Position numbers and translations under genes: made by a program. Below are positions 427-51,153 of a DNA stretch of 64,000 nt, in pieces (within the stretch, counting starts at the first letter, position 1; every line of letters starts with the position of its first letter). The notes under the pieces were generated by a model. The model was not told where the DNA came from. It ran no database searches and worked only from the letters and a program-made list of their open reading frames with translations. This DNA comes from Primula veris (lineage: Eukaryota > Streptophyta > Magnoliopsida > Ericales > Primulaceae), in NCBI GenBank assembly GCA_963682055.1, contig OY821747.1, positions 21,822,126-21,886,125 of the forward strand. Reading direction: 5' to 3'.

Positions 427-977
427 GAGCTTGAATTTTTCTACTACACTTTTTCTGATTGTACATAAAATGTATGGTTTGGGTTTTCAGTACAAATCGT
501 ACATTTAATCTATAGACCGTAAATTTTTTGTACCGTTTGGACTAAGAAATTACAGTACTGGTCCCTGCTTCTTCGTTAAACATAATTTCTCTTCATTTCC
601 CTTTCTTTCACAGTTTGTTTACAGATTTTATAAAATAAAAATAAAAACCCAAATCACCAATCAACCAAAATAAAAACCATAACCACCAAATTTTGTCAGA
701 TTAAACCACGTTTAGCTTTAATTCACCGAATTAGATAACCTAATTCAAGCTATTTCTTTATTCCCTAGTTTATTATTTATTTTATATAGTTTCAATTTGT
801 AAAATAGGAAAAAAGATATAAAATATGTCAATTGATTATTCACTTAGGTGATTATAATTGTTGTTATTTGTTTATATTAATTAAAAAAACTTAGAGTTGT
901 TGATATTTTTCCCGTTTTATAAAAATCATGGTTTTTATTCAAATTTGTTTATTTAGATATTTATGACTAATTGTTTG
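427..977 (+). repeat. Left terminal inverted repeat of the MULE, outer part
   Basis: The reverse complement of 23220-23825 matches this stretch almost throughout, including the AT-rich block with GGTTATCTAATTCGGTGAATT and the block ending AGATATTTATGACTAATTG. The Gypsy element begins at 978, directly after the 5-bp target duplication GTTTG (973-977). The arm resumes at 18460. Confidence 0.85.
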
Positions 978-1547
978 TGATAAAGCCATAACTTTGGTCG
1001 GTCACGTTAGGCTTTTCAACAATGATATAATGATAAATCAACCGTGAATAAATGATACTTCCTGATCTTTATTATTGCTCGGATTATTGTCCTTGTTCGG
1101 ACTCTTACATTTGCTCGGATTAGTATTTCGGTTTTACAATTATGCTCGATATAACTATTTAATCTCTCGTCTTGATCTTTCTCCTCTTTTATTCGGTGCT
1201 CGGCTGTCTTTTCTCGGTTTATTTCTCGAAGTGATATGCTTTGGTTAGTTTCTCTCTTTTCTTAACTTCTCTCTATATTTTTTGGATAGATTTTCTGGGC
1301 CCTTTTTCTAGGAGGGGTAGTTGGCTATTTATAGGCAACTGCGCCTTCTAGGATACTGACAAATGTCTTCATCCCAGTGATTTTTCAGACACGGGTCCCC
1401 CTTTGATTGGGCTTGGGCTTTTGGTAGTAGCACCTCAATTCCTATAAAAAGTATGAGATGACCCATTTAAGCGTTGGATACCCATTTATAAAGTGGGTTG
1501 ATTATGACCCGAATAAAATATTCGGGTCTGATTTTTATGTTCTATCA
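978..1547 (-). repeat. Downstream (3') LTR of the Tat element
   Basis: 570 bp, matching 17890-18459 except for two substitutions seen by eye near 1379 and 1383. Contains the palindromic core TTTATAAA (1485-1492) inside CCCATTTATAAAGTGGG, which could serve as a TATA box on either strand. In the element's orientation this is the 3' LTR; in the plus direction it sits upstream of the antisense genes. Confidence 0.92.
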
Positions 1548-1730
1548 AGTGCTCCCTGACTTCCTCGGCGTGGTTTCCATGTCGGGGGAGTCATGTTCGG
1601 TTTGTCGAGAACGTTACTTCGGTCTTGTTTTTCCCAATACTTCATCGAGAAACGCAATAGACTCGTGACGGTTCCCAGGGGGGCACATTTAATGTTTCCT
1701 ATCCTAATATCTTTCTTCGAGGAAAACTCC

Positions 1731-1737
1731 TATAAAG
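1731..1737 (+). promoter_or_regulatory. TATA box of the first antisense coiled-coil gene
   Basis: TATAAAG at 1731-1737, 60 bp upstream of the ATG at 1791 and facing the plus strand. Similar TATA boxes occur at matching distances before the next four small genes (2358, 3381, 4679, 5408), three of them close to a GCTCCCT-like stretch. Confidence 0.55.
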
Positions 1738-1790
1738 GGGTGTGCTCCCTCCATAATTAGGCATTTTACTACTAATTTGCCCGTGACATA

Positions 1791-2111
1791 ATGGCTTCTT
1801 CTGGTTCTACTGGTGAGAGCTCCTTTAATTATATTTCATATTTAGAAACGGAAATCAAGAAATCTCGTACCGCGAATAAGAAACTCGTGGCCAAGGTTTC
1901 AACCTACAAGAAAAGGTTGTCTGACATGGATTCTGATCATCATGTGACGATGGCCGATCGGGATTGGGCCTATGAGCATATAAAGAGGCTCGAGGCTAAT
2001 CTGGCTAAGCAGAAGGCAGCAAAAAGGGCCTATAAGCTTGCCTTCAAGGAGTTGCATGCTCGGTCCAAACCGAGTTCGGATGACGATGAAGAAGGCTCTT
2101 CCTCGAAATAA
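1791..2111 (+). CDS. Small coiled-coil protein, antisense gene 1 of the Tat element
   Basis: 106-residue protein starting MASSG and ending in an acidic, serine-rich tail (DDDEEGSSSK). The middle is highly charged and fits a coiled coil, with heptad-like Leu/Ala spacing from about residue 15 to 90. The C-terminal part contains KRAYKLA-KE-ARSK, which is shared with the next gene, so the two are paralogues. It has its own TATA box at 1731 and an AATAAA signal at 2191-2196, and looks like a complete single-exon transcription unit. It lies antisense to the retrotransposon, just inside the downstream LTR. I recognise no enzyme domain and its function is unknown. Extra antisense ORFs are known from Tat elements, but I do not recognise this short gene as a named family. 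Confidence 0.7.
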   Translation: MASSGSTGESSFNYISYLETEIKKSRTANKKLVAKVSTYKKRLSDMDSDHHVTMADRDWAYEHIKRLEANLAKQKAAKRAYKLAFKELHARSKPSSDDDEEGSSSK

Positions 2112-2190
2112 TTAGTCTTTTGTAATTTCTGTCGTAATTTCTCTTGAATGGGGAGTCTTCTCCTCAGTTGTAATCGAAGTTTTTGGAATT

Positions 2191-2196
2191 AATAAA
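2191..2196 (+). terminator. Polyadenylation signal AATAAA of antisense gene 1
   Basis: AATAAA 80 bp after the stop codon of the gene at 1791-2111, followed by T-rich sequence. A matching AATAAA follows the second gene (2815-2820) and the fifth (5903-5908). Confidence 0.45.
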
Positions 2197-2414
2197 ATAT
2201 TTTCCTTTCCTTGTTCTTGTCTGTTTATCTTCTTGATGTCTTTTTGGATGACTTTAATTGGATTTGGAACTGTGGTTAATTCGCCTTAAATGCTCTTGGG
2301 AAGTTCAAGAGGTTGTATTTATTCGAGATGACCTTTGATCTACTCTTTGTTTCTTCTTATAAAAGGGGACTGTCCCAGTATTTTTTATGCAGTTCATTCT
2401 TTATTAACGAACAA

Positions 2415-2753
2415 ATGGCTTCTCCTCTTGAAAACTATGGTGACAACCTTCCTGAATACGTTGCCCGTCTGGAAGAGGAAGTTCAGAAGGTGCGTTATCT
2501 CGAGAAGAGGGTTGCCCAGCTGTCGGTGGAAGCTCGTCGGGCCGCCGAACTAGACGAGCGATTGGATGCCCTAGAGAAGGAGCACCAGAGGTCTTTGCTC
2601 GACAGTATTCGTGCTCGTGCCCGGATCAAAGAGCTCGAGGCCTCCAGAGATAGGCAGCTTGCTTCCAAGAGGGCTTACAAATTGGCCCTTAAGGAAGTGT
2701 ATGCTCGGTCGAAGAGGAAACCGAATGACGAAGCGGGCCCTTCTATGAAATGA
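2415..2753 (+). CDS. Small coiled-coil protein, antisense gene 2 of the Tat element
   Basis: 112 residues when started at the ATG at 2415 (MASPLENYG). This start is preferred because a TATAAAA box lies at 2358-2364, and an earlier in-frame start would fall before the box. Almost the whole protein is predicted coiled coil rich in Arg, Glu, Leu and Ala (LEEEVQKVRYLEKRV, and RARIKELEASRD near residue 80). The C-terminus, SKRAYKLALKEVYARSKRK, matches gene 1, so they arose by duplication or share a conserved functional end. AATAAA follows at 2815-2820. No domain recognised. Confidence 0.7.
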   Translation: MASPLENYGDNLPEYVARLEEEVQKVRYLEKRVAQLSVEARRAAELDERLDALEKEHQRSLLDSIRARARIKELEASRDRQLASKRAYKLALKEVYARSKRKPNDEAGPSMK

Positions 2754-3012
2754 TTTTATTGTTTTCATTGTATTTCCTCTTTGTGCTTCTTCTGTAACGA
2801 AGTATCAACCAATCAATAAAGATTTCTTTTTCTTGTTTATATCTGAATTATTTTCCCAATGCAATTTATTTTGACTGCGCACGCTTGTGGCCTCATCAAT
2901 GCTTTTCTTGGGCCTTGCGTTTGATCTTATCCATTGGACCTTTTTACTCTTTATATCTAGGGACCAATAGGATTTCTTGAGCCTTGTGCATAAAAATCTT
3001 ATTCACCAGAGT

Positions 3013-3190
3013 TTTCTTGATCTCTGTGCAAAAGATCTTAGATATTTATTTGAACCTAATGCCTTTCCCCAGAAATGACGTGTGTTTCAATGCCATTATT
3101 ACTTAAGCTTTGTGCAAAAGATCTGGGATATTTATTCGAACCGCTGCCCTTCCCAAAAATGACGCGTGTTTTGCTGCCATTATTACTTAC
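3013..3190 (+). repeat. Diverged tandem duplication, about 95-bp unit
   Basis: Two adjacent copies, each running from TGTGCAAAAGATCT through GATATTTATT-GAACC to a GCCATTATTACTT end. Located in the spacer between antisense genes 2 and 3. No coding potential seen. Confidence 0.65.
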
Positions 3191-3472
3191 CCCCTTTAAA
3201 TATTGGTAAGAATCCAAACGTTTCTTGAACAGGTGTGGCTTTTAATTACTCACGCTCTTTAGAATCTTTTGGGAATCCAAACGTTTTTGTTGAACAGTCA
3301 CCTCTTTTGAGTGCCATCGCTTCTGAATACCCATTGGCGAATGGTTGCGACTCTCAATCCCAGCCCTCATCTAATTGATCTATAAATACCTGCTTACAGC
3401 ATGGTTACATCCACACTTCTCATCATATTATTTTCCCCCATATATAGACCCTCATCTTATAATTTCCCTAAG

Positions 3473-3712
3473 ATGTCTGGTCCTTTCACCCAATCAGCAT
3501 TATCTTTGCAAGTGGAGGCCTTTGAAGCCTCCTATAACCATGTACAAAGGCTGTTGAGGGATGCCGAGGAGGAATTGAAGGTGATGCGTTATCACCATAC
3601 CGAGATGGTTCGGGAATTAACTTGGCTAAGATCCGAACTGGCTTACTGCCGACGTGCTCGTCAGGCTCTAGTCGAAGAGAATGAGATGCTAAGGGGGGGA
3701 ACCCGACACTGA
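3473..3712 (+). CDS. Small coiled-coil protein, antisense gene 3 of the Tat element
   Basis: 79 residues from the ATG at 3473 (MSGPFTQSA). A TATAAATA box lies at 3381. Residues about 12-72 are charged and alpha-helical with leucines at heptad-like positions (VQRLLRDAEEELKVM, then LTWLRSEL). The starting MSG is shared with gene 4. It ends just before a long pyrimidine tract. No domain recognised. Confidence 0.55.
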   Translation: MSGPFTQSALSLQVEAFEASYNHVQRLLRDAEEELKVMRYHHTEMVRELTWLRSELAYCRRARQALVEENEMLRGGTRH

Positions 3713-3767
3713 GGGACAGGGATGTCTCTGCCGGGCCCTCTCATCGATACCGATCGACTTCCCCCTA

Positions 3768-4255
3768 ACCTTCCCCCTTCTTTTTTTTCTTTTTCTCTGC
3801 TTTTCCCCATCTTTTCCCATCTCTTCCTTTTTCTTTTCTTTTTTTTATTTCTCCGTTTCCATCATTTCTTCCTCTTCCTCTCTTGTGTTTTTTTTTTTAT
3901 ACTCTGTTTTCTCGTACTTTTTATTCTTTTCTTTTCCCCTTTCTTTTTTGTTTCATTGACTTCCTTTTTAGTTGTCTGTCTCCTTCATCTCTTTATCTTC
4001 TTCTCATCTGTTTTTCTTCTGTGCCTCCTCTTTCTTTTTCTTCATCTTCTCTCCCATCACTTTTTTGCACCACTACGATGTAACAATCAGCCCTATGATC
4101 CAAAGGGTTTTGTGTTACATTTAGGGTTGGTCATTTTTATTTTTGACTCTTCTTTCTTATCACTTCTTCTTTTCTTGCACTCTTCTTCTTTTCCTCTTCT
4201 TGCTTTTCCTTTCTCTTTCTTCTTACTTTTTCTTTTTGGCGTCTCCTGCTCACTT
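3768..4255 (+). repeat. Polypyrimidine (T/C) tract
   Basis: About 490 bp that is almost all T and C on the plus strand, interrupted mainly near 4070-4125. On the element's own sense (minus) strand it is a long purine tract. The long plus-strand frames through it encode Phe/Leu/Ser runs only and are not treated as genes. Confidence 0.8.
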
Positions 4256-4303
4256 GGTCAGCTGATATAGTTGATCCTTTGCCTGATCTTCTGTACTAGC
4301 TCT

Positions 4304-4402
4304 TCTCGGATGTAATAGATCTTTTCGGATGTAATAAGTTTTCTTTTCGGATGTAATAGGTTTTTATCTCGGATGTAATAGATTCTTATCTCGGATGTAA
4401 TA
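4304..4402 (+). repeat. Short tandem repeat, TCGGATGTAATAG unit
   Basis: Five imperfect copies of a roughly 20-22 bp unit built on TCGGATGTAATA, in the spacer before antisense gene 4. It may belong to the 3' end of gene 3's transcription unit, but this is inference. Confidence 0.75.
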
Positions 4403-4781
4403 TTGTCTTTTGATGTAATGAACAATGATGTATTACATCTTCATTAATGAAAAGTATTTTTGCCATTTTATTTTTGCATTTCTTTTTATATAGTACCTGT
4501 GGTTTGTTGTTTGTCGGGAATCTAGATCTTTGAATATCTCGTCTTTATTTCTTTTGCACTGTGGTCTCAGATGTCAGTAGATGTCCCCATCACTGTCAAA
4601 CATATGTGCATGCTCCCCAGCATGTCAGGAAATATGCAATTTCCCAAGCAAGGTCATAAAATATCGTACTCTCCGTTCTATAAGTACTTCTCTTTTCTTT
4701 GATAGTTTATCATCTCTTTTTTCTTTTTGCTTCTCTCTTCCTCAGCCCTTTATTTTCTTCCGTACTAAACAATTTCCTAGA

Positions 4782-5261
4782 ATGTCTGGACATGTGGTGA
4801 GATATCATGCTCAGATGAAGGGCTTGGACTCTGAGGTATCTCGGGTCCGCCGTCGGATGGCAAGGCTTGAGAAAGAGTATGGCGTTTTGGCCTTGAGCTT
4901 GTTCGGCTCTTATCCCGAAGAGACGGTGAAGTGGACCGAGATCTCGGCACTGAGTCGCCAGCTCGATCACTTGTTGCTACAGAGAAACCATCTGGCCAAC
5001 TCCTGGTATGATGCCGAGGAAATTTGGGACCATTCTCAAGATGAGTTTGACAACTCTCCTCAAGGCCTAGCTAGCATAATGGTAAAGAATGCTCGGCTCG
5101 TGGAGCGCGTCAGGGTTCTTACTACGGAAAACAATAGGCTCTTCTCGGAGAATGACGATTTGGTCGCCATGAACGATTCCTATCAAGCTCGGTTGAATTG
5201 TTCTGCTCGTATTGCTTTCTCTCGGTCTGGCAGTTCGGTTTTTCCACCCATTGATCCTTAG
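4782..5261 (+). CDS. Coiled-coil protein, antisense gene 4 of the Tat element
   Basis: 159 residues from the ATG at 4782 (MSGHVVRYH); a TATAAG box lies at 4679, about 100 bp upstream. Two helical segments are visible: residues about 8-75, with basic-leucine heptads (VSRVRRRMARLEKEY), and about 105-145, with LVERVRVLTTENNRLFSEND, which resembles a leucine-zipper-like coiled coil. The tail is Ser/Pro-rich. Starts earlier in the frame would fall before the TATA box. Antisense to the retrotransposon polyprotein, with unknown function. Confidence 0.65.
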   Translation: MSGHVVRYHAQMKGLDSEVSRVRRRMARLEKEYGVLALSLFGSYPEETVKWTEISALSRQLDHLLLQRNHLANSWYDAEEIWDHSQDEFDNSPQGLASIMVKNARLVERVRVLTTENNRLFSENDDLVAMNDSYQARLNCSARIAFSRSGSSVFPPIDP

Positions 5262-5484
5262 ATTGGGCTGGTTTTCTTATGTATTTCCCCTTTTGCCATT
5301 TGTGTTTTATCTTCTGTATTTGACGAATCAGTTGTATCTTTTCGTATTATCTCGTGCCTGTCTTATGAACCATTGTAACGCTTCGTATTTTGTGCCTTTT
5401 GATTCTCTATAAATGCTCCCTATTGCATGTATCTCATTATCAATTTCTACCTCTCTCTTGTTTTATAATTTGCTTTTGCGTGAG

Positions 5485-5847
5485 ATGGCTCCCATCACTA
5501 GGTCTGCCTCCAAAAAGAAAGCCCTTATGGAAGAGGAGCCTACCTTTTTGCTACCTCGTCCCCCTGGCTTTGGGGAGGAGGATTTGACTCCTCTTCAACT
5601 AAAAGAAATTGAGATGTCATGGCTGAAACATGATCTCATGTGTGCTCGGACGGAAGCGAAGAGGTTTAAACAATATTGGGACGAGAAGGGCACTGCTCGT
5701 TTCAAGGCCGAGCAAAAATGCGAGTCTCAGTCTTATGCCTTGAAACAGGCTGAGATGGCGATTTCTCGTTTGGTTAGGGAGAAGGAGCGTCTGGAGGAAC
5801 TTTTGGCGAAGAGGGATGTTGCTATGGGGGATAGTTCGAAAAAGTAG
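5485..5847 (+). CDS. Coiled-coil protein, antisense gene 5 of the Tat element
   Basis: 120 residues from the ATG at 5485 (MAPITRSASKKK). TATAAAT at about 5408 and AATAAA at 5903-5908 give a compact transcription unit. The N-terminus is basic (RSASKKK), followed by a Pro-rich stretch (LLPRPPGF). From about residue 45 to 115 it is a charged helix (LKEIEMSWLKHDL, then LVREKERLEELLAKRD). The C-terminal GDSSKK resembles the Ser/Lys end of gene 1. No domain recognised. Confidence 0.65.
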   Translation: MAPITRSASKKKALMEEEPTFLLPRPPGFGEEDLTPLQLKEIEMSWLKHDLMCARTEAKRFKQYWDEKGTARFKAEQKCESQSYALKQAEMAISRLVREKERLEELLAKRDVAMGDSSKK

Positions 5848-6546
5848 GATGGGTGTATTTTCTTTTTCTGTTGTATTGTTTGTGTTTCCCCCTTTGTGGA
5901 TGAATAAAACTTGTCTTGCATTTGATTCTGTCCTATTTTATTTCCTGTTTGCCTCTCTTTATGTTTCTGAGCATACACCGAACAATATGGCCGGTTATCC
6001 CCCCGGAGAGCGTTGTTAGACTTGATGCTCCCTGTCATCAAGCTAGGAACGGTCTTCGTCCACCTTGTTCGGTGTGCCCTTGTGGTAAGGATTGGTTGGG
6101 AGTCGAGGAACTTTAATCGGGGGATATTCTCGGTGTGATAGTAGTGGTAGCGTATGTGAGAAGCTTTTCGTGGTAGGGTCCACTGGCCGTTTATTTAGAT
6201 TTAATGATGTGAACTGCCTTGGGTAGTGGAATACGCGCTGACGTGGCGAAATCTGGAGCGTTTATATGTTAAAAAGAGCAGCGGTTGTTGACTTTTGTAT
6301 GGTTGGAAAAAGGTAAACCTCTGTTACACGAAAGGACGGTTATTATTTTATTCCTTTTGTGACTCCACTCCTTTCTATTATGCCAAGTAATCCTGTTTAT
6401 TTTTATCACAGAATTTGCTGAAGAAAATATCTCTCTCTCTCTAAAGCATATTCTTCCCGCCAAAAAGGAAAAGAGTTCGGCTGCTTGATCTAGGGTTTCG
6501 TGGTTGTGTTGGAAGACTTGCTGCTGTTCGCGCTTGCTTACTCATA

Positions 6547-9500
6547 ATGATTACTGTAAGTGATTTTTCGTTCTCCCCCCCTTCCCTCTTTTAGGAGTTG
6601 TATTTGATTTGTCGTTGTGGTCATAGGTGTGTCGTTGGTACATGGTTCAGGTTATCTATATATGTCTGATGATTCTGATGTAATGTGCGTGGGGGGGGGG
6701 GGTGGCTCTCGTTCTATTGATGTGGTTCTGGTTTGTGTATTTGGTTAGTATATTGATGGATTTTTGATGATCTTTGTATAGGAAATTTTGACCCAAAGTG
6801 TGGCCCAAGTTGGCACATTCGTGGAAAAGGATTTTAAGGAGCTTGCCGGAATACCTGACAACATACATATCCGGCTTCCTATTTCTGACGAGGAGGTGCT
6901 GGGATTTGTACCTGCCGGCGAGGTGGCCGTGCGCTCTTCGGCATTCTTCACTGGGGGTCTTCGACTGCCCTTTACAAACTGGGTGGCTTCGTTCTTTGAG
7001 GCCATCCAGATTGCTCCGGCCCAACTGGCCCTAAATGGTTACCATACTCTGACTGGGATCCAAAGGCTATCGGAGCTGTCCGGAATACCGATTGAACTGA
7101 AGGATGTCTTCGGAGTCTATAGTTTGAGCTTTGAGCGGCGCAGCTCGTATCTGAAAACCTTGCGGTCCTTTTGCCGGCTCGTCCTCGGTTTGCCGGATAC
7201 CAACAAAGAGCGCAATCTTGGTATTGTTATTGCGTCTGGTGAATGGGCTTGTCCGGGATACCAGATCCCTGGGCCGGCTACCAATGCTCCCACTATGCCA
7301 GACCTCGGCGCCCCCAATGTAGAGGCTCTGTTAGCTCTTTGGAAATGGTGGGGGCCTGGACCTACGCCGGATCCTGCGAGTCGTACGGCTCCCATGTTGC
7401 TCGGTTACCCTATGGGGTCGGTGACCCGGGGGAATCCTGCACCCGAGATCCCCAAAGAGCCCGAGGAGGAATTCTTAAAGGTGGTCCAGGCTCGATGTGC
7501 TACTCGGCTTGGGAAAAAAACCGTTCGTTCTAAGCGTCGTGCATCTGACCCTGTCGTTGAAACAACGAAGAGGGCTAGGGGAACCGATACATCGGTTACC
7601 GAGGAAGATGCTAACGTTGGCTCGGGCGAGGGGGTGTTTGCTGCTTCTCAAGGGGATACCGCCGAGGATGCCTCTGCTCCAGGCGAGGTATGTGTATATG
7701 TATTATGATTTTCTTGTCTTTTGGTTGTTTGTCATTTGGTTCGCTAGTGCTTTGCTTTATTAGTCATCTTGTTTCAGCTACTGACTTCTCCATTGGTTAC
7801 CCTCGCTCTTGCCCGGTCTATGGGTATTATTGTGTTTCAGGGGTCGATCGACGATGTATTCGGACATATGAACCTCTTGACTAACATGGGAGAGGGTACG
7901 ATGACTTTGCCTGTCATCTCGCCTATCCCCACCGAGGGTCCGATAGATTTGCCCGTTTGCTCGCCCCTCCATACTGAGGAAGAGATCGAGCATAGGGCCC
8001 CTGAGATTGAGCAGTTGGAGGAGGACGTGGGGGTGGAAATGGAAGGCAGCGAAGAGAATGCCGGGGATGTTGTGACGGGTGTCGAGGATGAGGCTCTCGA
8101 CGGATCCGAGAAGGGGTTGGTTGACGGGGTTGCAATGACCCGGTACATTGACCGATGTAGGGGTGAACTGCTGGATCAACCGAGAACCTTGAAGATGGGG
8201 TATACGGCTCTGAAACCCCTTGTGTTCAAGAATGCAGAAAGACTATCTGCCCAACCTACAATGTCGGTTATAGAGCAGGCCCACGCGGATGCGCTGAGGG
8301 TACGTGGGGCTCGTATTTCACTATATAGGTTTGGTACTTGTATTTTATTTGGAAACTAATGTGTTGAAGTGCAGATTGCTGTGAGTACCGTGGCGCTACG
8401 GGATCAGCTGGGAGCTCTAGGGGCTGAGAAAGAGAAGCTGGTGGCCGAGAAGGAGAAATTGGTCGCCGAGAAGAAAACCCTGGGCGAGAATTATGACAAG
8501 CTGTCGGTGGACTTTCTGCACCTGACCGAGGATGTCGAGAAATTGAAGGTGGAAAAAGAGAGCATGGCCGTTAAGTACGGCGAACTAGAGGAGGAGAACT
8601 TGCTCCTGGCTGAGGACGTGGAAGCCGAAAAGGCTAAGGTGTCTGCCCTGAAAACGGCACAGGCGGAGGAGCGGAAAAAGTTAGCGATGATGGCCAACTT
8701 CTCTGTATACTGCGCTCATGTGCGGGCGCTCAATTTCGCGAATGTTCCTTTGTCGGATAGGGCGTGGTCGGAGTTGGTGTATCCGTGTCCGCATGGTGCA
8801 CCGCCGAAACCCTTGGACTGGGCGAATCTTCGTGAAGAAGAGCTTCCTCGGCTACCGGGACAGACAATTTCGACAGCGCTGCGTCCTCACTCTATGTCGA
8901 TCCCGTCCACTCCTCGACCGGATGCTACCGTTGTTCCCCCACCAGCATCTCCTCAGGTGGAACCTTGACTATCTTTCTAGCAGTATGTATATATTTTTTT
9001 TTTATTTTTTTTTTATTTTTTTTTTATTTTTTTTTGTATCTAGAAACAGATTCGTTTGGGGAAGTGATAATATAGGTGCTGTGGTTTCTTTCTGTTGGGC
9101 TTGCTTGGGTTAATTTCTTTTGATGGTCGTCATATTTTGAAGGATATGAAAACAAAATATTGTCAGGTACCAAATAACCCCCTTGTCATGGTGGTCTGGA
9201 CCTCGCCTAGTCGTAGTGTAGGTGACGTAATGGAGGATTTGGAAAGGTCTAACGCGTCCCTTACCGCGAAATTGACTTGTGCTTATCAGGAAATCGAGGG
9301 TCTGAATATTCATATTTCCAACCTGGCGATCCGGTTACGTGATTTGGGAGAGAAATTTAGTAAAAAGACTGCCCATTATACGGCAAATAAGGGTAAAGCA
9401 AAGGAACTTCCCAGTGCCCTACGACGTTCTCGTGATGAAGCCCGAGGTCGTGTGACGAGCTTGAGCTTGGTCCTTGGGGCCGTTTTCGAGGACGCGGATC

Positions 9501-10567
9501 TGCTGCTATCCTTTGCCAAAGCGTATTGGGCCCGAGCTCGCGCCTTAGAGGTGCTGGAGCATATAAAAGGAATGAGTGGTGTGTCCCAGGCAGAGCGCAT
9601 GGTGGATGCGAAGGCCGGGGTAACTGAAACCACTGTTGCCTTGAACCGAATCGAGGCGGTCATTCGTGAGCGTTTGGGGACGCAAATTAATTCATTGCGA
9701 GATATTCATTTTGCCGATGTAGTAGAGACTTCGGCGTCTGTTGAGGGGTTGTCGGATTAATAAAATAGCTTGTTTTGTCGTTTTCTTTGTAGCTTGTATA
9801 AAAAAATTCTCTCCTCTTTTTTTTTTTTTTGTAGCTTCTTGCTTCTTTTTTTTTTTTTTTTTTTTTTTAATATTCATCTCTTCTCGTTCGTCTCCCCCCC
9901 TCTTTTTTTTTTATAGGCACATGCTACTATGTTGCACCAGGCTGGTTCTCCATGCCTAGTTAACCCGGGGTTAGGACCTACTGGTGCTGCCCGGGACGAG
10001 GTCTCATCTGGTGCGGCTAGTGAGGTGCCTGACAGGTGGCCCTACATTGTTTTGATGAGCAAAAATGTCAAATTGACCGACCAATGTGCTCGACTGCGGA
10101 CCAAGCTGAAAACCCAGGCGACCTCTTTTCGAGAATACGTTCGCCGTGCCGAGCATGCTGTTGAGGTTCAGGAGCGTCGTTTGAATCGATATTGGCGTGC
10201 AAAGGGCGAGTACTTCGGCAAATTAAAGTTGCTTGTGACCAAGGCCAACGTGTTGGTGAAGTATTTCCGTTTGTCCCGTGCCAGATACGATGCTTCCGCA
10301 GCTGTGATCGAAGCTCGCCGTAACCTCTCCTTTGACGATGATCGCCATAAAGCGGCCTCGGATGCTCACGAGTTCGCCAAAGAAGCCGAGTTCAACGCGC
10401 GGCTTCAGACGCTGACTTGTGTTGGGGCTCATACGACCAATTTTGATGCCCTCATTTCTGAGGAGCGTTTTGATGGTGATGAGTCTGATGGGTACACAAC
10501 GACGGATGACGAAGAGATTGAGCTCGGTCAATTACCGTCGTGCTTCTCTTGCAGTAGCTCTTCTTAA
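6547..10567 (+). CDS. Multi-exon antisense gene: Transposase_28-like N-terminus plus long coiled coils
   Basis: Proposed exons: 6547-6555 (codes MIT), 6782-7687, 7841-8299, 8375-8956, 9167 to about 9720-9757, and 9917-10567. The supported introns are GT-AG and all in phase 0. The donor of the fifth exon is uncertain, so the last exon could be read separately. The product would be about 1,060 residues. Residues about 15-210 resemble the plant putative gypsy-type transposon family (Pfam Transposase_28): note FTNWVASFFEAIQIAPAQLA and WACPGYQIP. A basic stretch, KKTVRSKRR, near residue 248 could be a nuclear localisation signal. Exon 4 has repeated EKEKLVAEKEKLVAEKK heptads, and exons 5-6 are also helical. 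The gene runs antisense to pol, between integrase and the downstream LTR, where Tat elements are known to carry such an ORF. Function unknown. Confidence 0.7.
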
Positions 10568-10860
10568 ATGAATCTCTTTAGTGTCGTTGATCTTCTTGTT
10601 GCCTCCGTAATGCGGGCGAGGACTATATATGTTATTTCTTTATTCCTGTTTTGTACCTTTCCATTGCCGTATTGCTATTAATTGATTGGATCGATTTTTC
10701 CTTGCTAAATCATTTGTTATTTCGTTATTCCTGTTTTGGAGATGCTTCTTGTTGATATTTTGTTGTTTAGATTGATTCTCCTTCATTATTTTAGCCAATT
10801 TATATTGCATCGCCGCCGTAATGTGGACCTGAATAATTCCTTGCATTGTACCTGCATATA
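10568..10860. other. Spacer between the antisense gene and the satellite array
   Basis: T-rich sequence that probably includes the 3' end of the spliced antisense gene. No further gene seen. Confidence 0.5.
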
Positions 10861-11781
10861 AATTTCATAGTATTCCTAGGCGTTCCTTCGGTAACACGCC
10901 ATGTTGGGAATTTCATAGTATTCCTAGGCACTTCGGCCATGTTGGGAATTTCATAATATTCCTAGGCGTTCCTTCGGTAACACGCCATGTTGGGAATTTT
11001 ATAGTATTCCTAGACGTTCCTTCGGTAACACGCCATTTACGGAATTTCATAGTCTTCCTAGGCACTTCGGCCATGTTGGGAATTTCATAGTATTCCTAGA
11101 CGTTCCTTCGGTAACACGCCATTTACGGAATTTCATAGTATTTCTAGGCACTTCGGCCATGTTGAGAATCTCATAGTATTCCTAGACGTTCCTTCGGTAA
11201 CATGCCATTTACGGAATTTCATAGTATTTCTAGGCACTTCGGCCATGTTGAGAATCTCATAGTATTCCTAGACGTTCCTTCGGTAACACGCCATTTACGG
11301 AATTTCATAGTATTTCTAGGCACTTCGGCCATGTTGAGAATCTCATAGTATTCCTAGACGTTCCTTCGGTAACACGCCATTTACGGAATTTCATAGTATT
11401 TCTAGGCACTTCGGCCATGTTGAGAATCTCATAGTATTCCTAGACGTTCCTTCGGTAACACGCCATGTTGGGAATTTCATAGTATTCCTAGGCACTTCGT
11501 CCATGTTGGGAATTTCATAGTATCCCTAGACGTTCCTTCGGTAACACGCCATTTACGGGATTTCATAGTATTTCTAGGCACTTCGGCCATGTTGAGAATC
11601 TCATAGTATTCCTAGACGTTCCTTCGGTAACACGCCATTTACGGAATTTCATAGTATTTCTAGGCACTTCGGCCATGTTGAGAATCTCATAGTATTTCTA
11701 GACGTTCCTTCGGTAACACGCCATTTACGGAATTTCATAGTATTTCTAGGCACTTCGGCCATGTTGAGAATCTCATAGTAT
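10861..11781 (-). repeat. Satellite-like tandem array inside the Tat element
   Basis: About 21 subunits of two types: a longer one containing CGTTCCTTCGGTAACACGCC (about 48 bp, 11 copies) and a shorter one containing CACTTCGGCCATGTTG (about 38 bp, 10 copies). Both end in a shared TCATAGTATTCCTAG-like core. Through most of the array they alternate strictly, giving an 86-bp higher-order unit. It lies just downstream of the integrase stop, where Tat/Ogre elements are known to carry hypervariable tandem repeats that can seed genomic satellites. Confidence 0.92.
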
Positions 11782-11891
11782 TAGTAGACAGCATAATAAT
11801 ATATTTTATTCATTCAAAAGAAGAAAGATAATGCCATTAAGCAAGAAGGGTAAGGTAGCACCTGTACTTGTACTTGTATTCGGAGCATTGC

Positions 11892-14560
11892 CTATACGTA
11901 ATACTTCTTTAAGTTAGCCACATTCCAAGAATTCTTTTCCCCTCGGCTGTTGGCGAACAGGACGCTTTTGATTTTGTAAGAGACTGGACTTGTTCGCTTG
12001 ACGATTTCGTATGGGCCTTCCCAGGTAGGGCTTAGTTTGCCATGTATTTCGTTGCGGGTATAGACCGTCACTCGTCGCAGCACCAGTTCTCCTACCATGA
12101 ATTCTTTGGATCCTTTTACTCTCTTGTCATAAGTTTGCTTCATGCTTTGTTGGTACTTAGCTAGGGTAAGGGCCGCTATCTCTCGTTTCTCGTCTATCAT
12201 GTCGAGCTCTTCTCTCATTCTTTGTTCATTATTTCCCTGCTCGACCAACGTCGTTCGGAGCGTGGGTAGCCCGATCTCTGTCGGTATGACGGCCTCAACA
12301 CCGTATGCTAAGCTAAACGGGGTTTCCTTGGTGCCCGTCTTGGGTGTAGTTCGGCACGACCATAAAGCGTTGAGTAGCCGCTCGGGCCACCTCCCCTTTG
12401 CCTGTTCAAGGGTGGTCTTGATGCCGTCTAATATTGTTCGGTTTGACACTTCGGCTTGCCCGTTCCCTTGTGGGTATGTCGGCGTCGAATAGAATTTTCG
12501 GATACCGAGTTCCTCGTACCACAGCTGTAAATTGGCATCTTTGAACTGGGTTCCGTTGTCGGCGACTATAGCGTACGGAATACCGAACCTAGTTATGATG
12601 TATTCCCAAATGAATTGTTTGACGTTGCTGGGTTTGATTTCTCGGAGGGGTTTAGCTTCGACCCATTTGGTGAAATAATCAGTCGCAACGATTAGATATT
12701 CCACATTCCCAGGTGCTCTTGGGAGTTTACCGACCAAATCAATTGCCCATTGAGCGAACGGCCATGGTGCTGATACCGGGGTCATCATAGATGAAGGGAG
12801 CCGTGGTATCTTGGCGAATCGTTGGCACTTGTCGCATCGTTGGACGTATGCATCGGCGTCTCGCTTGATATAGGGCCACCAATATCCTTGGGTCACTGCC
12901 TTGTTTGCAAGGGATCGCCCTTTGATGTGTGCTCCGCAGGATCCTTCGTGGATTTCCTCCAAGACCGGCAGTTGTAGCTCGGTCGGGACGCACAGCAGAT
13001 GTGGTCCCCGGTAACTGGATTTGTATAGTTTATCGTCCTCGGATAGCCAGAAGCGAGGTGCTTTTCTTGTAATTTTCAGCGCTTTTATCTTGTCGACCGG
13101 AAGCGTTCCACTTCGCAGATAATGGGTCATGTCCTCCATCCATCCTAGTTCGTACTGTATCGATGTCACCCGGTTTACCCTTTTTATTATGCTCGGGGTC
13201 GGCAGTAGTTCCACTGTGATCAACCGGGTGTCGGTCAATGTTAATGTCGAGGCTAGGGTGGCCAATGCATCCGCATGTGCATTCTCGGTGCGATTGATTC
13301 TTACTAACTCGCACTGTTCGAAGGTGGCCATCAAGCTTTGGACTTTTTCTTGGTAGAGGATCATTCTATCATCTTTCGCTTGGTACTCGCCGATGGCTTG
13401 ATTGACGATGAGCATGGAGTCTGAGCTTGCAATTAAGTGGGAGCATCCGAGGGACCGGGCAATAAGCATGCCATTTATCATGGCCTCGTATTCTGCCTCA
13501 TTGTTGGTAGCTCGGAAGCCCAGTTTTATGCTTTTTTCGATGATTGCTCCCTCTCTAGACTTTAGGACGATCCCTGCTCCTGATCCGTCCTTGGTGGCTG
13601 ATCCGTCGACATGTATCTGCCAGTGTGATTGTGGAGAGAGTGTCAAAGGCTCGTCATAGCCTTCGGTGAATTCTGCGACGAAATCGGCCAGGACTTGTCC
13701 CTTTATGGCATGGCGGGGTGCGAACTCGATATGAAATTGGGATAGCTCGACCCCCCAGGTGGCAACTCGGCCGCTAATATCCGTCCGTCGAAGTGACTCT
13801 TTAATATGAAATTTTGTGTATACCCGGACCTGATGAGCTATGAAATAGTGTGGCAACTTTCTGGTTGCGACGACCAATGCCAGACACAGCTTTTCCAAGG
13901 GTAAATAACGTGTTTCGGCTTCGACCAGAGTCTTGCTGATGAAGTAGATCGGAAATTGTTCGCGACCTTCTTCTCTTAGGATAACTGCGCTCACAGCTGT
14001 AGTGGAAACTGCTAGGTAGCATGCCAGAATGTCTCCTTTGTTCGGCCTTACTAGCAGTGGCAGTGTCCTCAAGTACTCTTTGAGATTGTTGAATGAGACT
14101 TCACATTCCGGGTCCCAGACGAATTTTCTATCCTTCTTGAGTGATTCGAAAAATGGCCGTCCCTTATCTGCGGATCGGCTAATGAACCTGCTCAGCGCGG
14201 CCATCATTCCCGTGAGCTCTTGTACCTGTTTCTTGTTATTGGGCGCTGCTAGGTTTCGTAGAGCCGTTATTTGATCGGGATTAGCCTCTATTCCTCGTCG
14301 GCTAACCATATGCCCCAAGAATTTCCCTTTGCTGATGCCAAATGCACACTTGCTCGCATTGAGTTTCAGTTTGTGCTCGCCCAGAGTTCGGAAAACGTCC
14401 CTGATATCTTGTAGGTGGGATGTGGCTTTTTCGCTCTTGACGACCATGTCGTCTATGTATACCTCCATCGTCTTCCCTATATGATCTCGACATACCCTTG
14501 TTATCATCCTTTGGTATGTTGCTCCTGCATTGCGTAGGCCGAACGGCATTACCGTATTAG
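11892..14560 (-). pseudogene. Gypsy pol, second part: RT C-half, RNase H, second RNase H, integrase
   Basis: Open frame that picks up the reverse transcriptase at MPFGL and holds the YIDD catalytic motif, then the thumb and a Gypsy RNase H region. Next comes a second, archaeal-type RNase H (starting IHVDGSATKDGSGAG, with NNEAEYEA and ADALATLA), which is characteristic of Tat elements. Integrase follows, with an HHCC zinc-binding region (H-x6-H, CDKC), catalytic D (AIDLVGK), D (VADNGTQF) and E (GQAEVSNR), and a C-terminal GPY motif (WEGPYEIV). It is separated from the upstream RT half by a one-base frame offset near 14558. The frame is open a little further upstream (to 14648), but that part is out of register with the RT. 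Catalytic residues downstream of the break are all present. Confidence 0.92.
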
Positions 14561-16962
14561 CAATAATTTCCCAAAGGTGAGATAAACGAAGTCTTTTCTT
14601 GATCTTCGCGGGCGAGGGGAATTTGATGGTATCCTGAATATGCGTCAAGGAAGGTCATCCGTTCTGCCCCCGCAGTTGCGTCCACCAGTTGATCAATCCT
14701 CGGAAGGGGAAAGTGGTCCCTCGGGCAGGCTTTGTTGAGGTTTGTGAAGTCTATACATACTCTCTCCTTCCCGTTCTTCTTAGGGACGACAACCGGGTTG
14801 GACAACCATTTTGGATAGTAAACCTCTCTTATGGCTCCAGCCTCCAATAACTTTTGTACTTCAGCGATTATAGCTGTTCTGTGCTGTACAGACACTTTCC
14901 TGCTCCTCTGTGCTATCGGCTTGTACTCGGTGTTTACACTTAGGTGGTGGCATGCTGTATTGGGGTCTAGGCCCGGCATATCTTTAGGGCTCCAGGCGAA
15001 TTTATCAGTGTTATTGAGAAGGAATGCTTTCAACTCCTCGGATTCCTGTTTTGGAAGGTTGTCGCCGAGGAGGAAGTAATGCTCCTCGTCCATATCTGGT
15101 ATATACACCTTCCTAAGTGTCTCTCCTACTTGTTCTTCGACAACCCTTTCGGCTTTGGATATTTGGCTGATCAGCTTCTTTGTGCTGGTGGGTTGTTCCA
15201 CAGTGCTTCGTTGTTGTTGGAGAGTCGCGGTGATGTTCTCGCAGCGTCTTGAATCTTCTTGACATCCTCTGGCTGTCTCGATCGCCCCCCTATCATTTGG
15301 GTATTTGACCTTTTGGTGATAGGTCGAGGGTATGGCCTTCATGGCATGTAACCAAGGTCGGCCCAATATTGCGTTGTGCCCGGAGTGGTCGTCGACCACT
15401 AAGAACTCCACGGGAACCGACATGGACCCTGTTGTGACACTGAGGACGATCTTACCCAAAGGTTTGGTCATTTCGGAGATGAATCCGATCAGTGTGACAT
15501 CGGTAGGCTGTAGATCTTGCAGCTTGAGTTCCATCTTGTCGAAGAGCTCCTTGTACATGATATCACAAGAGGCTCCTTGGTCGACAAGTACCCTGCTGAC
15601 TGTTTCTAGGCCGATTTGAACACGGAGGTTAATGGCGTCTCCGTGGGGGTAAATCACCCCTTCTTCGTCAAGATCCGAGAAAGAAATGGGCGGATGTCGT
15701 CGTGGTGCGCATTGTCGTTTAGAGGTCGACGCCTGTGATGTCTTGGCTACTTGGCCAAAGTGGGCCAGCTGCCGTTGTCGTGATCGTTCCCCGCCTGGGC
15801 CCTTGGGTCGTGACATATGAACGACGTTGATCGTTTTGCCTTGCCGGTTGTCAGATCCCTCGATGGCCAGTTGTTTGCCTTTATTCCCAGCTCCTTTGAT
15901 GAACTTGGCTAGGTATCCTGCATCGCCCCACTGGTTCATTCTCCATCGCAGGTTACGGCAATGCTCAGTGAGATGGCCGTGATCCTCATGATATGCGCAG
16001 AAGAGCTTGGAATCTCTCTGATTGGGGGGAGAGATGATCGGTTGTGGTCGGGAATACCAACTTTCCCTGCATATATCCTTGAGGATATCTTCAGCAGACA
16101 GGTTGAAAGTGTATCGCAGCTCGACCGGTCCGAAAGTGTTTCGGTGTTCCCTCTCTTGGGGCCGAACCTGTTGAAATGGCTTGGGTGGCATCGGGTAGGC
16201 GAGCTGAAGCGGTTTATGTTCGTTGGTCGGTGTTGGGTATGCGATCTGGAGCGGTTTAGGCTCTAGTGCTCGTGGTCGCTCTCCCCTGCTATGGACCTCG
16301 GGCTCTTTGCCCTTTCTGGTCGGTTGGAATGCTTCTCCCTGGTTATTTCTAACTCTTTTGCGACCCACCTGTGCCTCGCGGACCGACTCTCTTCTCGGTA
16401 GAGTTCGGTTGAGGAAACGCAGTTCGTCGTTTTTATCGGTGAGGTGTGTACAATAGGCTAGCAGGGAATCAGTGGTCGGGAAGTTTTTACCTATGAACTT
16501 CCTTCTCGCCCAATAGCCATTAGGGATGGAATTGATAAAGTTTTGGATGGCTATATTATTGGCATATCGTGGAATCTGGTTTGCTACGTCGATAAAACGT
16601 ATGCAGTAATCGTTGAGCCTTTCATTCGGCATCATCGTCATTTTAAGAAGGGTTTCGATACTAACCTTCTTTTTCCGATGAGCAGCGTATCGGGTGGAGT
16701 ATGCCCTTAGCAATTCTGCCCAGTTTCGAATGGAGCCCCGTGGTAAGTTATGATACCATGACGAAGCCTCTTGACCCAAGCTGTTTTTGAAAAATTTGCA
16801 CATCAGTGCATGGTCATCACTCCACAGTTCCATCTTCGTCTTGTAGTGCCTCAGATGGTCGATAGGGCAACTCTTCCCGTCATAGAGCCTGAATTCGGGG
16901 ATGACGAATCCCATAGGATTGCGGTACCGCGTGATCTGTTCAACACACGGGTTTCTTGGCAT
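14557..16962 (-). pseudogene. Gypsy gag core, zinc-binding motif, protease and RT N-half
   Basis: The first in-frame ATG is at 16962 (MPRNPC). The gag capsid region follows (FRLYDGK, then LMCKFF, then SIRNWAELL). Around residue 325 is a modified zinc knuckle (C-x2-H-x4-GH-x4-C), as in Tat/Athila gag. The aspartic protease has VLVDQGASCDIMY and the supporting ILGRPWLH. RT blocks include PVVVPKKNGKERVCIDF and LDAYSGYHQI. The frame then stops directly after LGNYC because of one extra base relative to the next frame, in the middle of the RT domain. This is a disabling mutation rather than a normal gag-pol junction. Confidence 0.9.
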
Positions 16963-17810
16963 ACGTTCCAAGCCTGTTGGAACGCGTCATCCGTGACTTG
17001 GTAGGGGGGAGGGTATCCTCCCTGATGTGGTGGTGGGCCATATCCCTCCCCGATCCTGTATTCGGGATATCTATCGTCCTTCGTGTTTGTGTGGACACGT
17101 TCCATATGAGTGTTCGGATGGACGATAGTTATTGGGACATTGCCCCCTTGGTGGGGGACTCTTGTATCGGGTCGCCGACCCGCTGCCTCCAGGGCGGCCC
17201 TGTAGGCAGAATCTTCCACTTCATGGCGTTGGTCTTTGTCGGGTTGGATAACTGGCAATACGATGCCGGCCGCTGTCATGGCCGTCATGCATGCCGCCAG
17301 CTGAGCTTGTAGCTGGGTGTAGTTCCTTTCATCGGCTAATGGAACGACATGTTGTACCTCCACCGTGGGTGGTGTAATCATCCTCGGAGAATTAGTCGGC
17401 AGTCGGGGCGACTGTCCGAGTACATGATCCTCGGGCATGCCAAACTGATGAGCCTCGTCCGCTTGTAAACGAGCACCGGAGTTGACCGAGGCCGTAGGCA
17501 AAGGGACTCTTGAGCTCGGCCCTGCTTGGGACCCGGTTAAGCGTCTTCGTGCACGCCTTAATACGGGCACGTCTTGTTCGTCCTCCGAGGACGAAGGGTG
17601 TTCGTCGACAATCCCTTCAATGAAATGTCGGGGTGGTTCGACCGGTTGTTCTTGGTTGACGTAGGAGGTTGTTGGTTGGTTTCCGGATTGGATAGCTTCA
17701 TATCTGTCGCGGATAGCGAGTAGATCGTCGAGGTCTTGTTGGCTAATTTGCGTGTTTTGGTTATTGGTTTCTACTATCTCGGGATGGGTTTCCTCTACAT
17801 TGGTAACCAT
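16851..17810 (-). pseudogene. Gypsy gag N-terminal region, out of frame with the gag core
   Basis: Starts at the ATG at 17810 (MVTNVEETHPEIV), the first ATG after the primer-binding site. About 280 residues of polar, low-complexity, Pro/Gln-rich sequence fit the poorly conserved N-terminus of Tat gag. The frame ends at 16851, but the conserved gag core continues in another frame from at least 16962, so a frame break lies between about 16851 and 16971. A programmed frameshift is possible but unusual inside gag; a simple indel is more likely. Confidence 0.75.
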
Positions 17811-17869
17811 TGTCGCTCGTCTGGCAGAGTATTGGTATTCGAATTCTAAACTAGTTGGGAACTAGATGA

Positions 17870-17887
17870 TTCCCGGAGACGACGCCA
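17870..17887 (-). other. Primer-binding site of the Tat element
   Basis: On the minus strand, two bases inside the upstream LTR, lies TGGCGTCGTCTCCGGGAA. It starts with TGGCG, as do primer-binding sites of many plant Gypsy elements. I did not assign the tRNA. Confidence 0.65.
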
Positions 17888-17889
17888 TT

Positions 17890-18459
17890 TGATAAAGCCA
17901 TAACTTTGGTCGGTCACGTTAGGCTTTTCAACAATGATATAATGATAAATCAACCGTGAATAAATGATACTTCCTGATCTTTATTATTGCTCGGATTATT
18001 GTCCTTGTTCGGACTCTTACATTTGCTCGGATTAGTATTTCGGTTTTACAATTATGCTCGATATAACTATTTAATCTCTCGTCTTGATCTTTCTCCTCTT
18101 TTATTCGGTGCTCGGCTGTCTTTTCTCGGTTTATTTCTCGAAGTGATATGCTTTGGTTAGTTTCTCTCTTTTCTTAACTTCTCTCTATATTTTTTGGATA
18201 GATTTTCTGGGCCCTTTTTCTAGGAGGGGTAGTTGGCTATTTATAGGCAACTGCGCCTTCTAGGATACTGACAAATGTCTTCATCCCAGGGATATTTCAG
18301 ACACGGGTCCCCCTTTGATTGGGCTTGGGCTTTTGGTAGTAGCACCTCAATTCCTATAAAAAGTATGAGATGACCCATTTAAGCGTTGGATACCCATTTA
18401 TAAAGTGGGTTGATTATGACCCGAATAAAATATTCGGGTCTGATTTTTATGTTCTATCA
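17890..18459 (-). repeat. Upstream (5') LTR of the Tat element
   Basis: 570 bp, begins TGATAAAGCC and ends TTCTATCA on the plus strand. The flanking target duplication GTTTG is at 18460-18464. On the minus strand the palindromic TTTATAAA (18397-18404) is a candidate TATA box for the genomic transcript. Confidence 0.93.
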
Positions 18460-18745
18460 GTTTGGTTTCATTAATTGTTTTTTACACAGCTATTACGTTG
18501 TTTTTTAAACAGCTTTCTGTTTAAAAATAGCTTAAAAGATGCTTAAAAAACAGTTTAAAAAATCAGTTTAAAAACAGTTTAAAAGCTGCTTAAAAAACAG
18601 CATAATAGCCGTGTAAAAAATAGTTAATTGCTTGCAGTATGCTTCATAGAGAAAAATGCTTCAGGTTCCTATTATTTGTAATATTGCACCTTTGACCCGT
18701 TTATGTTGTGTTTTTTTGCCTTCTCAGCGTTTTGCTGCTGTGATT
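18460..18745 (+). repeat. Left terminal inverted repeat of the MULE, inner part
   Basis: Continues the left arm after the Gypsy insertion and matches the reverse complement of 22868-23225. It contains many short inverted motifs of the type ACAGCTTAAAAGCTG and TTTAAACAG (18482-18615), also present in the right arm at 22995-23215. The arm ends inside the captured TBP exon. Confidence 0.8.
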
Positions 18746-51140: not shown

Positions 51141-51153
51141 AAAAGGGAGAGAT

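What the first reader, a model, noticed from the sequence alone, without database searches (positions are those of the whole stretch)
1548..10567. A Tat retrotransposon carrying a 9-kb antisense block of at least six genes
Seen: between integrase and the downstream LTR there are six plus-strand coding units, opposite to gag-pol. Five are short coiled-coil genes with separate TATA boxes, three of them with AATAAA signals; one is multi-exon. Known: Tat-lineage elements (for example Retand, Grande) can carry one or a few antisense ORFs. Inference: a whole battery of independent coiled-coil genes, together longer than the polyprotein, is unusual and could form a set of self-assembling or partner proteins serving the element.
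Basis: partly seen in the sequence, partly recalled or inferred. Interest (0 to 1): 0.9.

Follow-up and report, generated by a model that had tools for sequence, protein, structure and literature searches.

The report
Plant retrotransposon carrying eight backward genes
A jumping gene family in what looks like a plant genome carries, on the strand opposite to its replication genes, a row of eight extra genes, five of them small and each with its own likely start signal, that natural selection has kept intact over long evolutionary distances; what they do is not yet known.

Summary
The element (978-18459; LTRs 99.65% identical) is a Tat-type Ty3/gypsy retrotransposon of Retand anatomy. Between integrase and 3' LTR lie 10.3 kb with a tandem array and eight, not six, plus-strand genes: five small helix-rich genes, a four-exon gene with a sub-threshold Transposase_28 match, and two more ORFs. 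In the same genome 19 of 20 fetched copies carry the block (one without o7); the small ORFs keep exact length in 15-19 of 19. One copy each of two diverged subfamilies holds all eight genes in order. dN/dS of the five small genes pooled is 0.25 and 0.24 (pol 0.09, 0.08). Shared variants are poorer in amino-acid changes than private ones (p=0.003). A TATA box stands 57-106 bp before each small gene in all three (15 of 15). So the cassette is real and selected. The closest known kind is the antisense Transposase_28 ORF of Retand elements; the published survey's 10-kb reach and 600-bp ORF limit would miss this layout. Function is inferred: nuclear regulation, perhaps through the conserved array. 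No RNA evidence was available, and only one genome was compared.

The parts
978..1547 (-). 3' LTR (570 bp)
   Evidence: 99.65% identical to 17890-18459; TG..CA ends, TSD GTTTG
1791..2111 (+). o1, 106-aa helix-rich protein, paralogue of o2; TATA 1731, AATAAA 2191
   Evidence: exact length in 18 of 19 copies; dN/dS 0.29 (vs L029) and 0.41 (vs L030); 39% identity to o2, E 2.7e-17
2415..2753 (+). o2, 112 aa; TATA 2358, AATAAA 2815
   Evidence: 17 of 19 copies exact; dN/dS 0.46 and 0.26
3473..3712 (+). o3, 97 aa in other copies; this copy runs out of frame near the 3' end (private 2-nt difference); TATA 3381
   Evidence: 19 of 19 copies exact at 97 aa; dN/dS 0.49 (interval to 2.2) and 0.14; heptad score 0 of 200 shuffles
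4782..5261 (+). o4, 159 aa, three predicted helices; TATAAG 4679
   Evidence: 15 of 19 copies exact; dN/dS 0.17 and 0.20; 127 of the 150 best-scoring places of the P0002 search free of stops, by my count; model pLDDT 71
5485..5847 (+). o5, 120 aa; TATA 5408, AATAAA 5903
   Evidence: 18 of 19 copies exact; dN/dS 0.20 and 0.20
6547..6555 (+). four-exon (TRP28-type) gene, exon 1 (ATG ATT ACT, then GTAAGT)
   Evidence: sequence; same in 19 of 21 rows, one row changed inside the donor motif (GT kept), one in the third codon
6782..7687 (+). exon 2: sub-threshold Transposase_28 match, then a basic stretch
   Evidence: PF04195 E 0.027 here, 0.0012 to 0.013 in L029, L030 and P0008; cut-off 26.2 bits not reached in any; dN/dS 0.24 and 0.23
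7841..8299 (+). exon 3 (acidic, weakest constraint)
   Evidence: dN/dS 0.57 and 0.58; acceptor same in 21 of 21 rows, donor GT lost in 1 of 21
8375..8968 (+). exon 4, stop TGA
   Evidence: dN/dS 0.33 and 0.21; acceptor lost in 1 of 21 rows, stop in 21 of 21
9188..9760 (+). o7, 190 aa
   Evidence: 18 of 19 copies exact from 9188; dN/dS 0.35 and 0.21, measured from 9146
9929..10567 (+). o8, 212 aa
   Evidence: 18 of 20 copies exact, but copies were chosen by this gene; dN/dS 0.27 and 0.27
10861..11789 (.). tandem array (86-bp period made of two half-units), core GGGAATTTCATAGTATTCCTAGGC with dyad GGAAT-N8-ATTCC
   Evidence: TRF; core found 22 times here, 10 in L031, 10 in L032, allowing up to 7 mismatches
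11892..17810 (-). gag-pol: gag, protease, RT, RNase H, second (archaeal-type) RNase H, integrase; frame broken inside RT in this copy
   Evidence: Pfam order RVT_1, RT_RNaseH, RVT_3, H2C2, rve; RT break not shared by L031, L032
17890..18459 (-). 5' LTR

Best explanation
The block is an accessory gene cassette of a Retand-type retrotransposon family: eight genes read against gag-pol, the five small ones each behind its own TATA box, kept by purifying selection while the family multiplied. SHOWN here by comparison: open frames, gene order, TATA boxes, splice sites and amino-acid constraint are conserved in copies and, splice sites apart, in one copy each of two diverged subfamilies. INFERRED: the small genes are transcribed by RNA polymerase II independently of the LTR; their helical proteins act with the TRP28-type protein in the nucleus as regulators of the element. 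A possible site of action is the tandem array beside pol, whose 24-bp dyad-containing core is the same in all three subfamilies. Such a cassette could be expressed when the LTR is silent and so help to switch the element on or oppose its silencing. Likelihoods: selected coding cassette 0.95; separate promoters 0.85; nuclear regulatory role 0.4; array as the target 0.25.
For: Block present in 19 of 20 fetched copies, one of them (L014) without o7; the 20th, L022, aligns only from 6259 on. Small ORFs o1-o5 at exact length in 18, 17, 19, 15 and 18 of 19. Five small genes pooled dN/dS 0.25 (0.20-0.32) and 0.24 (0.18-0.30) against L029 and L030; pol 0.09 and 0.08. Small genes, shared versus private variants: 25N/31S against 98N/45S, Fisher p=0.0033; all 8 stop alleles found in the eight genes are private, one of them in a small gene. 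Shared-variant omega 0.30 in the true frame, 1.39 and 2.35 in the other plus frames. TATAAR at -57 to -106 in 15 of 15 gene-subfamily cases. Columns with gaps: 0-0.3% in o1, o2, o3, o5 and 4.6% in o4 (one 22-nt deletion), against 1.0-70% in eight flanking or spacer stretches of the small-gene part, six of them at 17% or more. Array core shared. Antisense ORFs and TRP28 are typical of Retand (PMC11963269, parts 1-3 of 5 and passages read); Grande gene23 has its own promoter and a nuclear product (as told in PMC7264820, whole text read).
Against: No RNA or protein data: transcription, splicing and localisation are untested. The TRP28 match is below Pfam's cut-off in all four sequences and its model failed (pLDDT 29). 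The small genes are less constrained than pol. Substitution density is not clearly lower in the small ORFs (6.9-12.7% variable sites) than in spacers (8.5-20.4%), and exon 2 is the most variable exon, 22.7%. Single-gene tests on shared variants are not significant for o1, o3, o4, o7 (p 0.09, 0.30, 0.06, 0.18) nor o8 (omega 1.56, 5 variants); o3 against L029 has an interval to 2.2. The minus-strand frame at offset 1 also gives 0.26, because its third positions coincide; it carries stops in every small gene. Protein-only tests on database relatives were mostly not significant. One 86-nt stretch of the array shows no excess folding. All DNA comparisons come from one genome; the database relatives have no stated organism. 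Whether other Retand families in this genome lack the cassette could not be searched.
Confidence: 0.5

Rival explanations
1. Capsid or particle partners: the helical proteins are structural or chaperone partners of Gag or of the pre-integration complex.
For: Helix-rich, small proteins, two of them paralogues (o1/o2); o4 modelled as three helices.
Against: Genes lie antisense behind separate TATA boxes, so they cannot be read from the genomic RNA; no Gag-domain match among the ten ORFs scanned.
Confidence: 0.2
2. Anti-silencing system: the cassette encodes sequence-specific factors that bind the element's own tandem repeats and remove silencing marks, as VANC proteins do for VANDAL transposons.
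For: Conserved repeated dyad core next to the cassette in three subfamilies; VANC proteins bind noncoding tandem repeats of their own elements (abstract of PMC10398659); PMC11963269 reports a DNA-binding prediction for TRP28.
Against: Homology to VANC was not tested; VANC target repeats diverge rapidly (same abstract), while this core is conserved; no binding data.
Confidence: 0.2
3. Antisense RNA control: what matters is plus-strand RNA that pairs with the genomic RNA; the ORFs are incidental.
For: Discussed as a possibility for antisense ORFs in PMC7264820; the block is antisense to the 3' part of the genomic RNA.
Against: Frame-specific amino-acid constraint, no shared stop alleles and few indels in coding parts.
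Confidence: 0.08
4. Captured host genes or another nested element carried passively.
For: No Pfam family above its cut-off for any of the ten block ORFs scanned; LTR retrotransposons are known to capture host sequences (PMC7264820).
Against: All eight genes in the same order in three subfamilies at dS 0.09 to 1.8; dN/dS point estimates below 0.6 in every gene part.
Confidence: 0.03

Closest known systems
Retand-lineage elements with antisense TRP28 (PF04195) ORFs (survey PMC11963269)
   Same: Non-chromovirus Tat type with a second RNase H between RNase H and integrase; long POL-3'LTR region; antisense TRP28-type ORF; tandem repeats adjacent to pol; LTR 570 bp within their 315-1,194 range.
   Different: POL-3'LTR 10,344 bp against 2,933-6,566; internal region 16,342 bp against 7,380-12,869; five further small antisense genes with own TATA boxes plus two more ORFs. 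The survey counted 104 antisense ORFs in 63 clusters.
Maize Grande gene23 (as told in PMC7264820)
   Same: Antisense gene between pol and 3' LTR transcribed from its own promoter.
   Different: One gene; here eight. Homology not tested.
Ogre elements
   Same: Same Tat clade and RNase H order (PMC6317226, passages).
   Different: The plant mobile domain found in 57% of Ogre elements (PMC6317226) was not found here by Pfam; only 79 bp between 5' LTR and first gag codon.
VANDAL transposons with VANC anti-silencing proteins (PMC10398659, abstract)
   Same: Possible analogy: element-encoded proteins plus element-borne tandem repeats.
   Different: DNA transposons (recalled); repeats diverge fast there; homology not tested.

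Membership tests
Retand (Tat clade, Ty3/gypsy) | Second (archaeal-type) RNase H between RNase H and integrase | tested here: met
   RVT_3 at 347-465 between RT_RNaseH and H2C2/rve; position as given for Ogre and Retand in PMC6317226
Retand (Tat clade, Ty3/gypsy) | RT phylogeny groups with Retand | not tested
   No reference RT set was at hand; assignment is by structure
Retand (Tat clade, Ty3/gypsy) | Antisense ORF with TRP28 (PF04195) between pol and 3' LTR | tested here: inconclusive
   Only Pfam family hit at E up to 1, same place in four relatives, E 0.0012-0.027, but 15.1-19.5 bits against cut-off 26.2
Retand (Tat clade, Ty3/gypsy) | Published size range of POL-3'LTR region (2.9-6.6 kb) | tested here: not met
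   10,344 bp; a survey range, not a definition, and elements laid out like this were out of its reach
Retand (Tat clade, Ty3/gypsy) | Non-chromovirus: no chromodomain after integrase | tested here: met
   No chromodomain in the Pfam scan at E up to 0.01; after rve only SH3_Tf2-1 and a weak Integrase_p58_C match
Ogre | Plant mobile domain ORF (in 57% of elements); extra ORF before gag (recalled) | tested here: not met
   No PF10536 hit among ten block ORFs; 79 bp between 5' LTR and first gag codon
Functional coding genes | dN/dS well below 1 | tested here: met
   0.25 and 0.24 for the five small genes pooled
Functional coding genes | Transcribed and translated | not testable with these tools
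   No RNA or protein data
VANC-like anti-silencing | Binds own tandem repeats and removes silencing marks | not testable with these tools
   Needs binding and methylation assays

The most novel reading that the evidence does not exclude
A retrotransposon that runs its own multi-gene nuclear control unit: eight antisense genes, the small ones on private promoters, whose products form a complex on the conserved dyad array beside pol and set or undo silencing of the family. That would be more antisense genes than in any retroelement I recall (from memory, not searched exhaustively).
Probability: 0.22. Interest if true: 0.85.

Novelty: new variant of a known kind. Interest (0 to 1): 0.68.

Why it matters
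The role and origin of antisense ORFs in Tat/Retand elements is an open question stated in both papers read (PMC7264820, PMC11963269). Here constraint on several small genes is measured, which argues that the proteins matter and not only the antisense RNA. It also points to a blind spot: surveys that look 10 kb around RT, or only at ORFs of 600 bp or 250 codons and more, would miss such small genes or the whole element, so cassettes like this may be commoner than thought. The conserved array gives a concrete DNA target to test.

Tried and rejected
Codon-usage scoring trained on gag-pol did not separate true from wrong frames. Protein-only neutral simulations on eight database pairs gave mostly weak results (p 0.008 to 0.44). 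Viral contigs (o8, pol) and genome contigs (pol) gave no relatives. The TRP28 model was too poor for a fold search, so none was run; none was run for o4 either. One 86-nt stretch of the array does not fold better than shuffles. Hidden paralogy of the small genes was looked for: only o1/o2 are clearly related (z 22); o3 against exon 2 of the TRP28-type gene (z 5.3) I take as coil-like composition. ORF 3722-4270 rejected as low-complexity sequence. The search for TRP28 genes (family PF04195, own genome) did not complete, so I cannot say whether other Retand families in this genome lack the cassette. Literature searches for a similar multi-gene cassette listed nothing alike by title or start of abstract; of the listed papers only PMC7264820, PMC11963269 and PMC6317226 were opened.
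Full report
WHAT IS THERE. The window holds a full-size LTR retrotransposon at 978-18459, in reverse orientation: LTRs of 570 bp, 99.65% identical, TG..CA ends, 5-bp TSD GTTTG. The empty site is seen in an inverted-repeat arm at 22872-23739. gag-pol lies on the minus strand (17810->11892) with RT, RNase H, a second RNase H (RVT_3) and integrase in that order, which PMC6317226 (passages read) gives as the Ogre/Retand order within Tat. Beyond integrase come an 86-bp-period tandem array (10861-11789) and then the antisense block up to the 3' LTR. That the genome is a plant's is inferred from the element type; PMC11963269 says TRP28 appears only in flowering plants.

THE GENES. Eight plus-strand coding units are present: o1 106 aa, o2 112, o3 97 (out of frame near its end in this copy), o4 159, o5 120, a four-exon gene of 655 aa whose three introns all fall between codons (my reading of the sequence; no cDNA), o7 190, o8 212. 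Exon 2 has a sub-threshold Transposase_28 match (E 0.027; 0.0012-0.013 in three relatives; cut-off not reached). With the spacing published for the conserved TRP28 positions (G21, P25, L34, P46, N47, F55; PMC11963269) I read, by eye, G, P and N at three places and F, L and I at the other three. The ORF surplus on the plus strand of 1548-6500 is beyond shuffles (six against mean 1.26, maximum 5 of 500), and TATAAR precedes 5 of 5 chosen starts (none of 2000 shuffles reached 4; 94 of 20,000 circular shifts reached 5). The starts of o2-o5 were chosen among in-frame ATGs, which favours this result; database relatives of o1, o2, o4 (P0002) and o5 start at the same ATG, the o3 relative starts further upstream, and P0001 starts at residue 6 of o4.

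COPIES IN THE SAME GENOME. The window lies in a 436-Mb genome. A DNA search with o8 scored 40 of 1,270 candidates, the window and 39 others at 98-99% identity. 19 of 20 carry the block, at 89-99% identity per aligned piece; L022 has only the part from 6259 on, and L014 lacks o7. ATG and exact length are kept in o1 18/19, o2 17/19, o3 19/19, o4 15/19, o5 18/19, o8 18/20 and o7 18/19 from 9188 (12/19 from the earlier ATG 9146). The three large exons of the TRP28-type gene are all open in 16 of 21 rows, window included. A protein search with P0002 scored 150 of 1,439 candidates; 127 of the 150 have no stop inside, by my count of the rows. Both lists are capped at the best scorers.

SELECTION. Variants carried by one copy only (taken as mostly after insertion) were compared with variants shared by two or more (taken as inherited through transposition). 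Five small genes: private 98 N (one of them a stop) and 45 S; shared 25 N and 31 S; Fisher p=0.0033. All eight genes: p=3e-8. All 8 stop alleles are private (o4 one, TRP28-type gene three, o7 two, o8 two). Per gene, shared omega is 0.35, 0.17, 0.38, 0.42, 0.25 for o1-o5 (alone significant for o2 and o5; o3 rests on 18 aligned copies), 0.26 for the TRP28-type gene (p=2e-15), 0.59 for o7 and 1.56 for o8; o8 has only 5 shared variants because copies were chosen by similarity in o8. Private omega is 0.80 pooled for the small genes. True frame 0.30 against 1.39 and 2.35 in the other plus frames; minus offset 1 gives 0.26 because its third positions coincide, but it is closed by stops in all five genes. 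Substitution density itself is not clearly lower in the small ORFs than in spacers; the share of columns with gaps is, in most comparisons.

DIVERGED SUBFAMILIES. Two places were fetched (L029, L030). Both hold all eight genes in the same order. dN/dS (counting method, bootstrap intervals): small five pooled 0.25 (0.20-0.32) and 0.24 (0.18-0.30); TRP28-type gene 0.34 and 0.28; o7 0.35 and 0.21; o8 0.27 and 0.27. The RT-to-integrase part of pol gives 0.09 and 0.08, and 0.11 between L031 and L032; about 30 of its some 910 codons, at the start, are an out-of-frame stretch of the window ORF, which I expect to raise the value slightly. So the small genes are constrained, less tightly than pol. These two copies have their own breaks (for example o5 and exon 2 of L029, the start codon of o5 in L030). 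L029 is a mosaic: its o4 is nearest to L030 (dS 0.25 against 0.70 to the window), as is o5 (0.39 against 0.64), while o1-o3, exons 2-4, o7 and o8 are nearest to the window, so cassette genes have been exchanged between subfamilies.

CONTROL SIGNALS. TATAAR stands 57-106 bp before the start in 15 of 15 gene-subfamily cases. In the aligned copies the TATA motif is kept except in one row each for o1 (substitution), o3 and o5 (gap). AATAAA follows o1 and o5 in all three subfamilies; for o2 it is seen in the window copies only; o3 and o4 have none in the window or L029. Splice sites of the TRP28-type gene are kept among the copies, apart from one row each that loses the third donor and the third acceptor; they were not examined in L029 and L030. 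The tandem array is made of a 24-bp core, GGGAATTTCATAGTATTCCTAGGC, with the dyad GGAAT-N8-ATTCC: 22 matches (7 or fewer mismatches) in the window, 10 in L031, 10 in L032, exact ones 2, 4 and 5. Its neighbours o8 and pol differ between subfamilies by dS 0.36-1.23 and 0.41-0.58, so shared cores mean constraint or exchange; I cannot tell which.

HOW IT MAY WORK. The proteins look helical; o3 and o4 have significant heptad patterns, and o4 is modelled as three helices. The TRP28-type product has a basic stretch (KKTVRSKRR...KRARG), which I read as a possible nuclear signal. PMC11963269 reports a DNA-binding prediction for TRP28; Grande gene23 is described as nuclear and self-promoted (PMC7264820). 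I infer a nuclear accessory set acting on the element, possibly at the array, with VANC anti-silencing (PMC10398659, abstract and outline seen) as a working analogy, not a homologue. None of this is shown.

WHAT IS KNOWN. Antisense TRP28 ORFs are usual in Retand (97% of clusters, PMC11963269). That survey compared 10 kb on either side of RT; here the 3' LTR begins about 13 kb from RT, so elements of this layout would be out of reach, and ORFs under 600 bp were not listed unless they held TRP28. PMC6317226 used 250 codons. In the protein database, relatives of the small proteins at 81-98% identity exist in unnamed public contigs. I found no report of such a cassette (listings; only the papers named were opened).

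VERDICT. Real, found in nearly all copies examined in one genome, under purifying selection; a new variant of a known kind, function open.

Noticed in passing
window 10861-11789; L031 1-530; L032 150-545: Tandem-array core with dyad GGAAT-N8-ATTCC is shared by three subfamilies although genes on both sides have diverged; candidate binding site.
   Followed up: partly
L029 3477-4509: Mosaic element: the o4-o5 segment is closest to subfamily L030, the other genes closest to the window copy; cassette genes are exchanged between subfamilies.
   Followed up: partly
window 14557-14648: Reading frame of RT is broken in this copy; the break is not shared by L031 and L032.
   Followed up: partly
window 461-977, 18460-18745 and 22872-23739: The element sits in one arm of a large inverted repeat; the other arm shows the empty site.
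   Followed up: yes
window 41432-42576 and 51153-52298: Direct repeats of 1.15 kb, 97% identical, 9.7 kb apart, perhaps LTRs of another element.
   Followed up: no
window 3780-4270: Long pyrimidine-rich stretch after o3 with an open frame of 182 aa (3722-4270); low complexity, with many gap columns among copies.
   Followed up: partly
window 3013-3189: A 90-bp direct duplication between o2 and o3; many fetched copies align as if they had one unit fewer.
   Followed up: no
window 18971-19057: A 45-bp unit repeated about twice some 500 bp outside the element (97% match).
   Followed up: no
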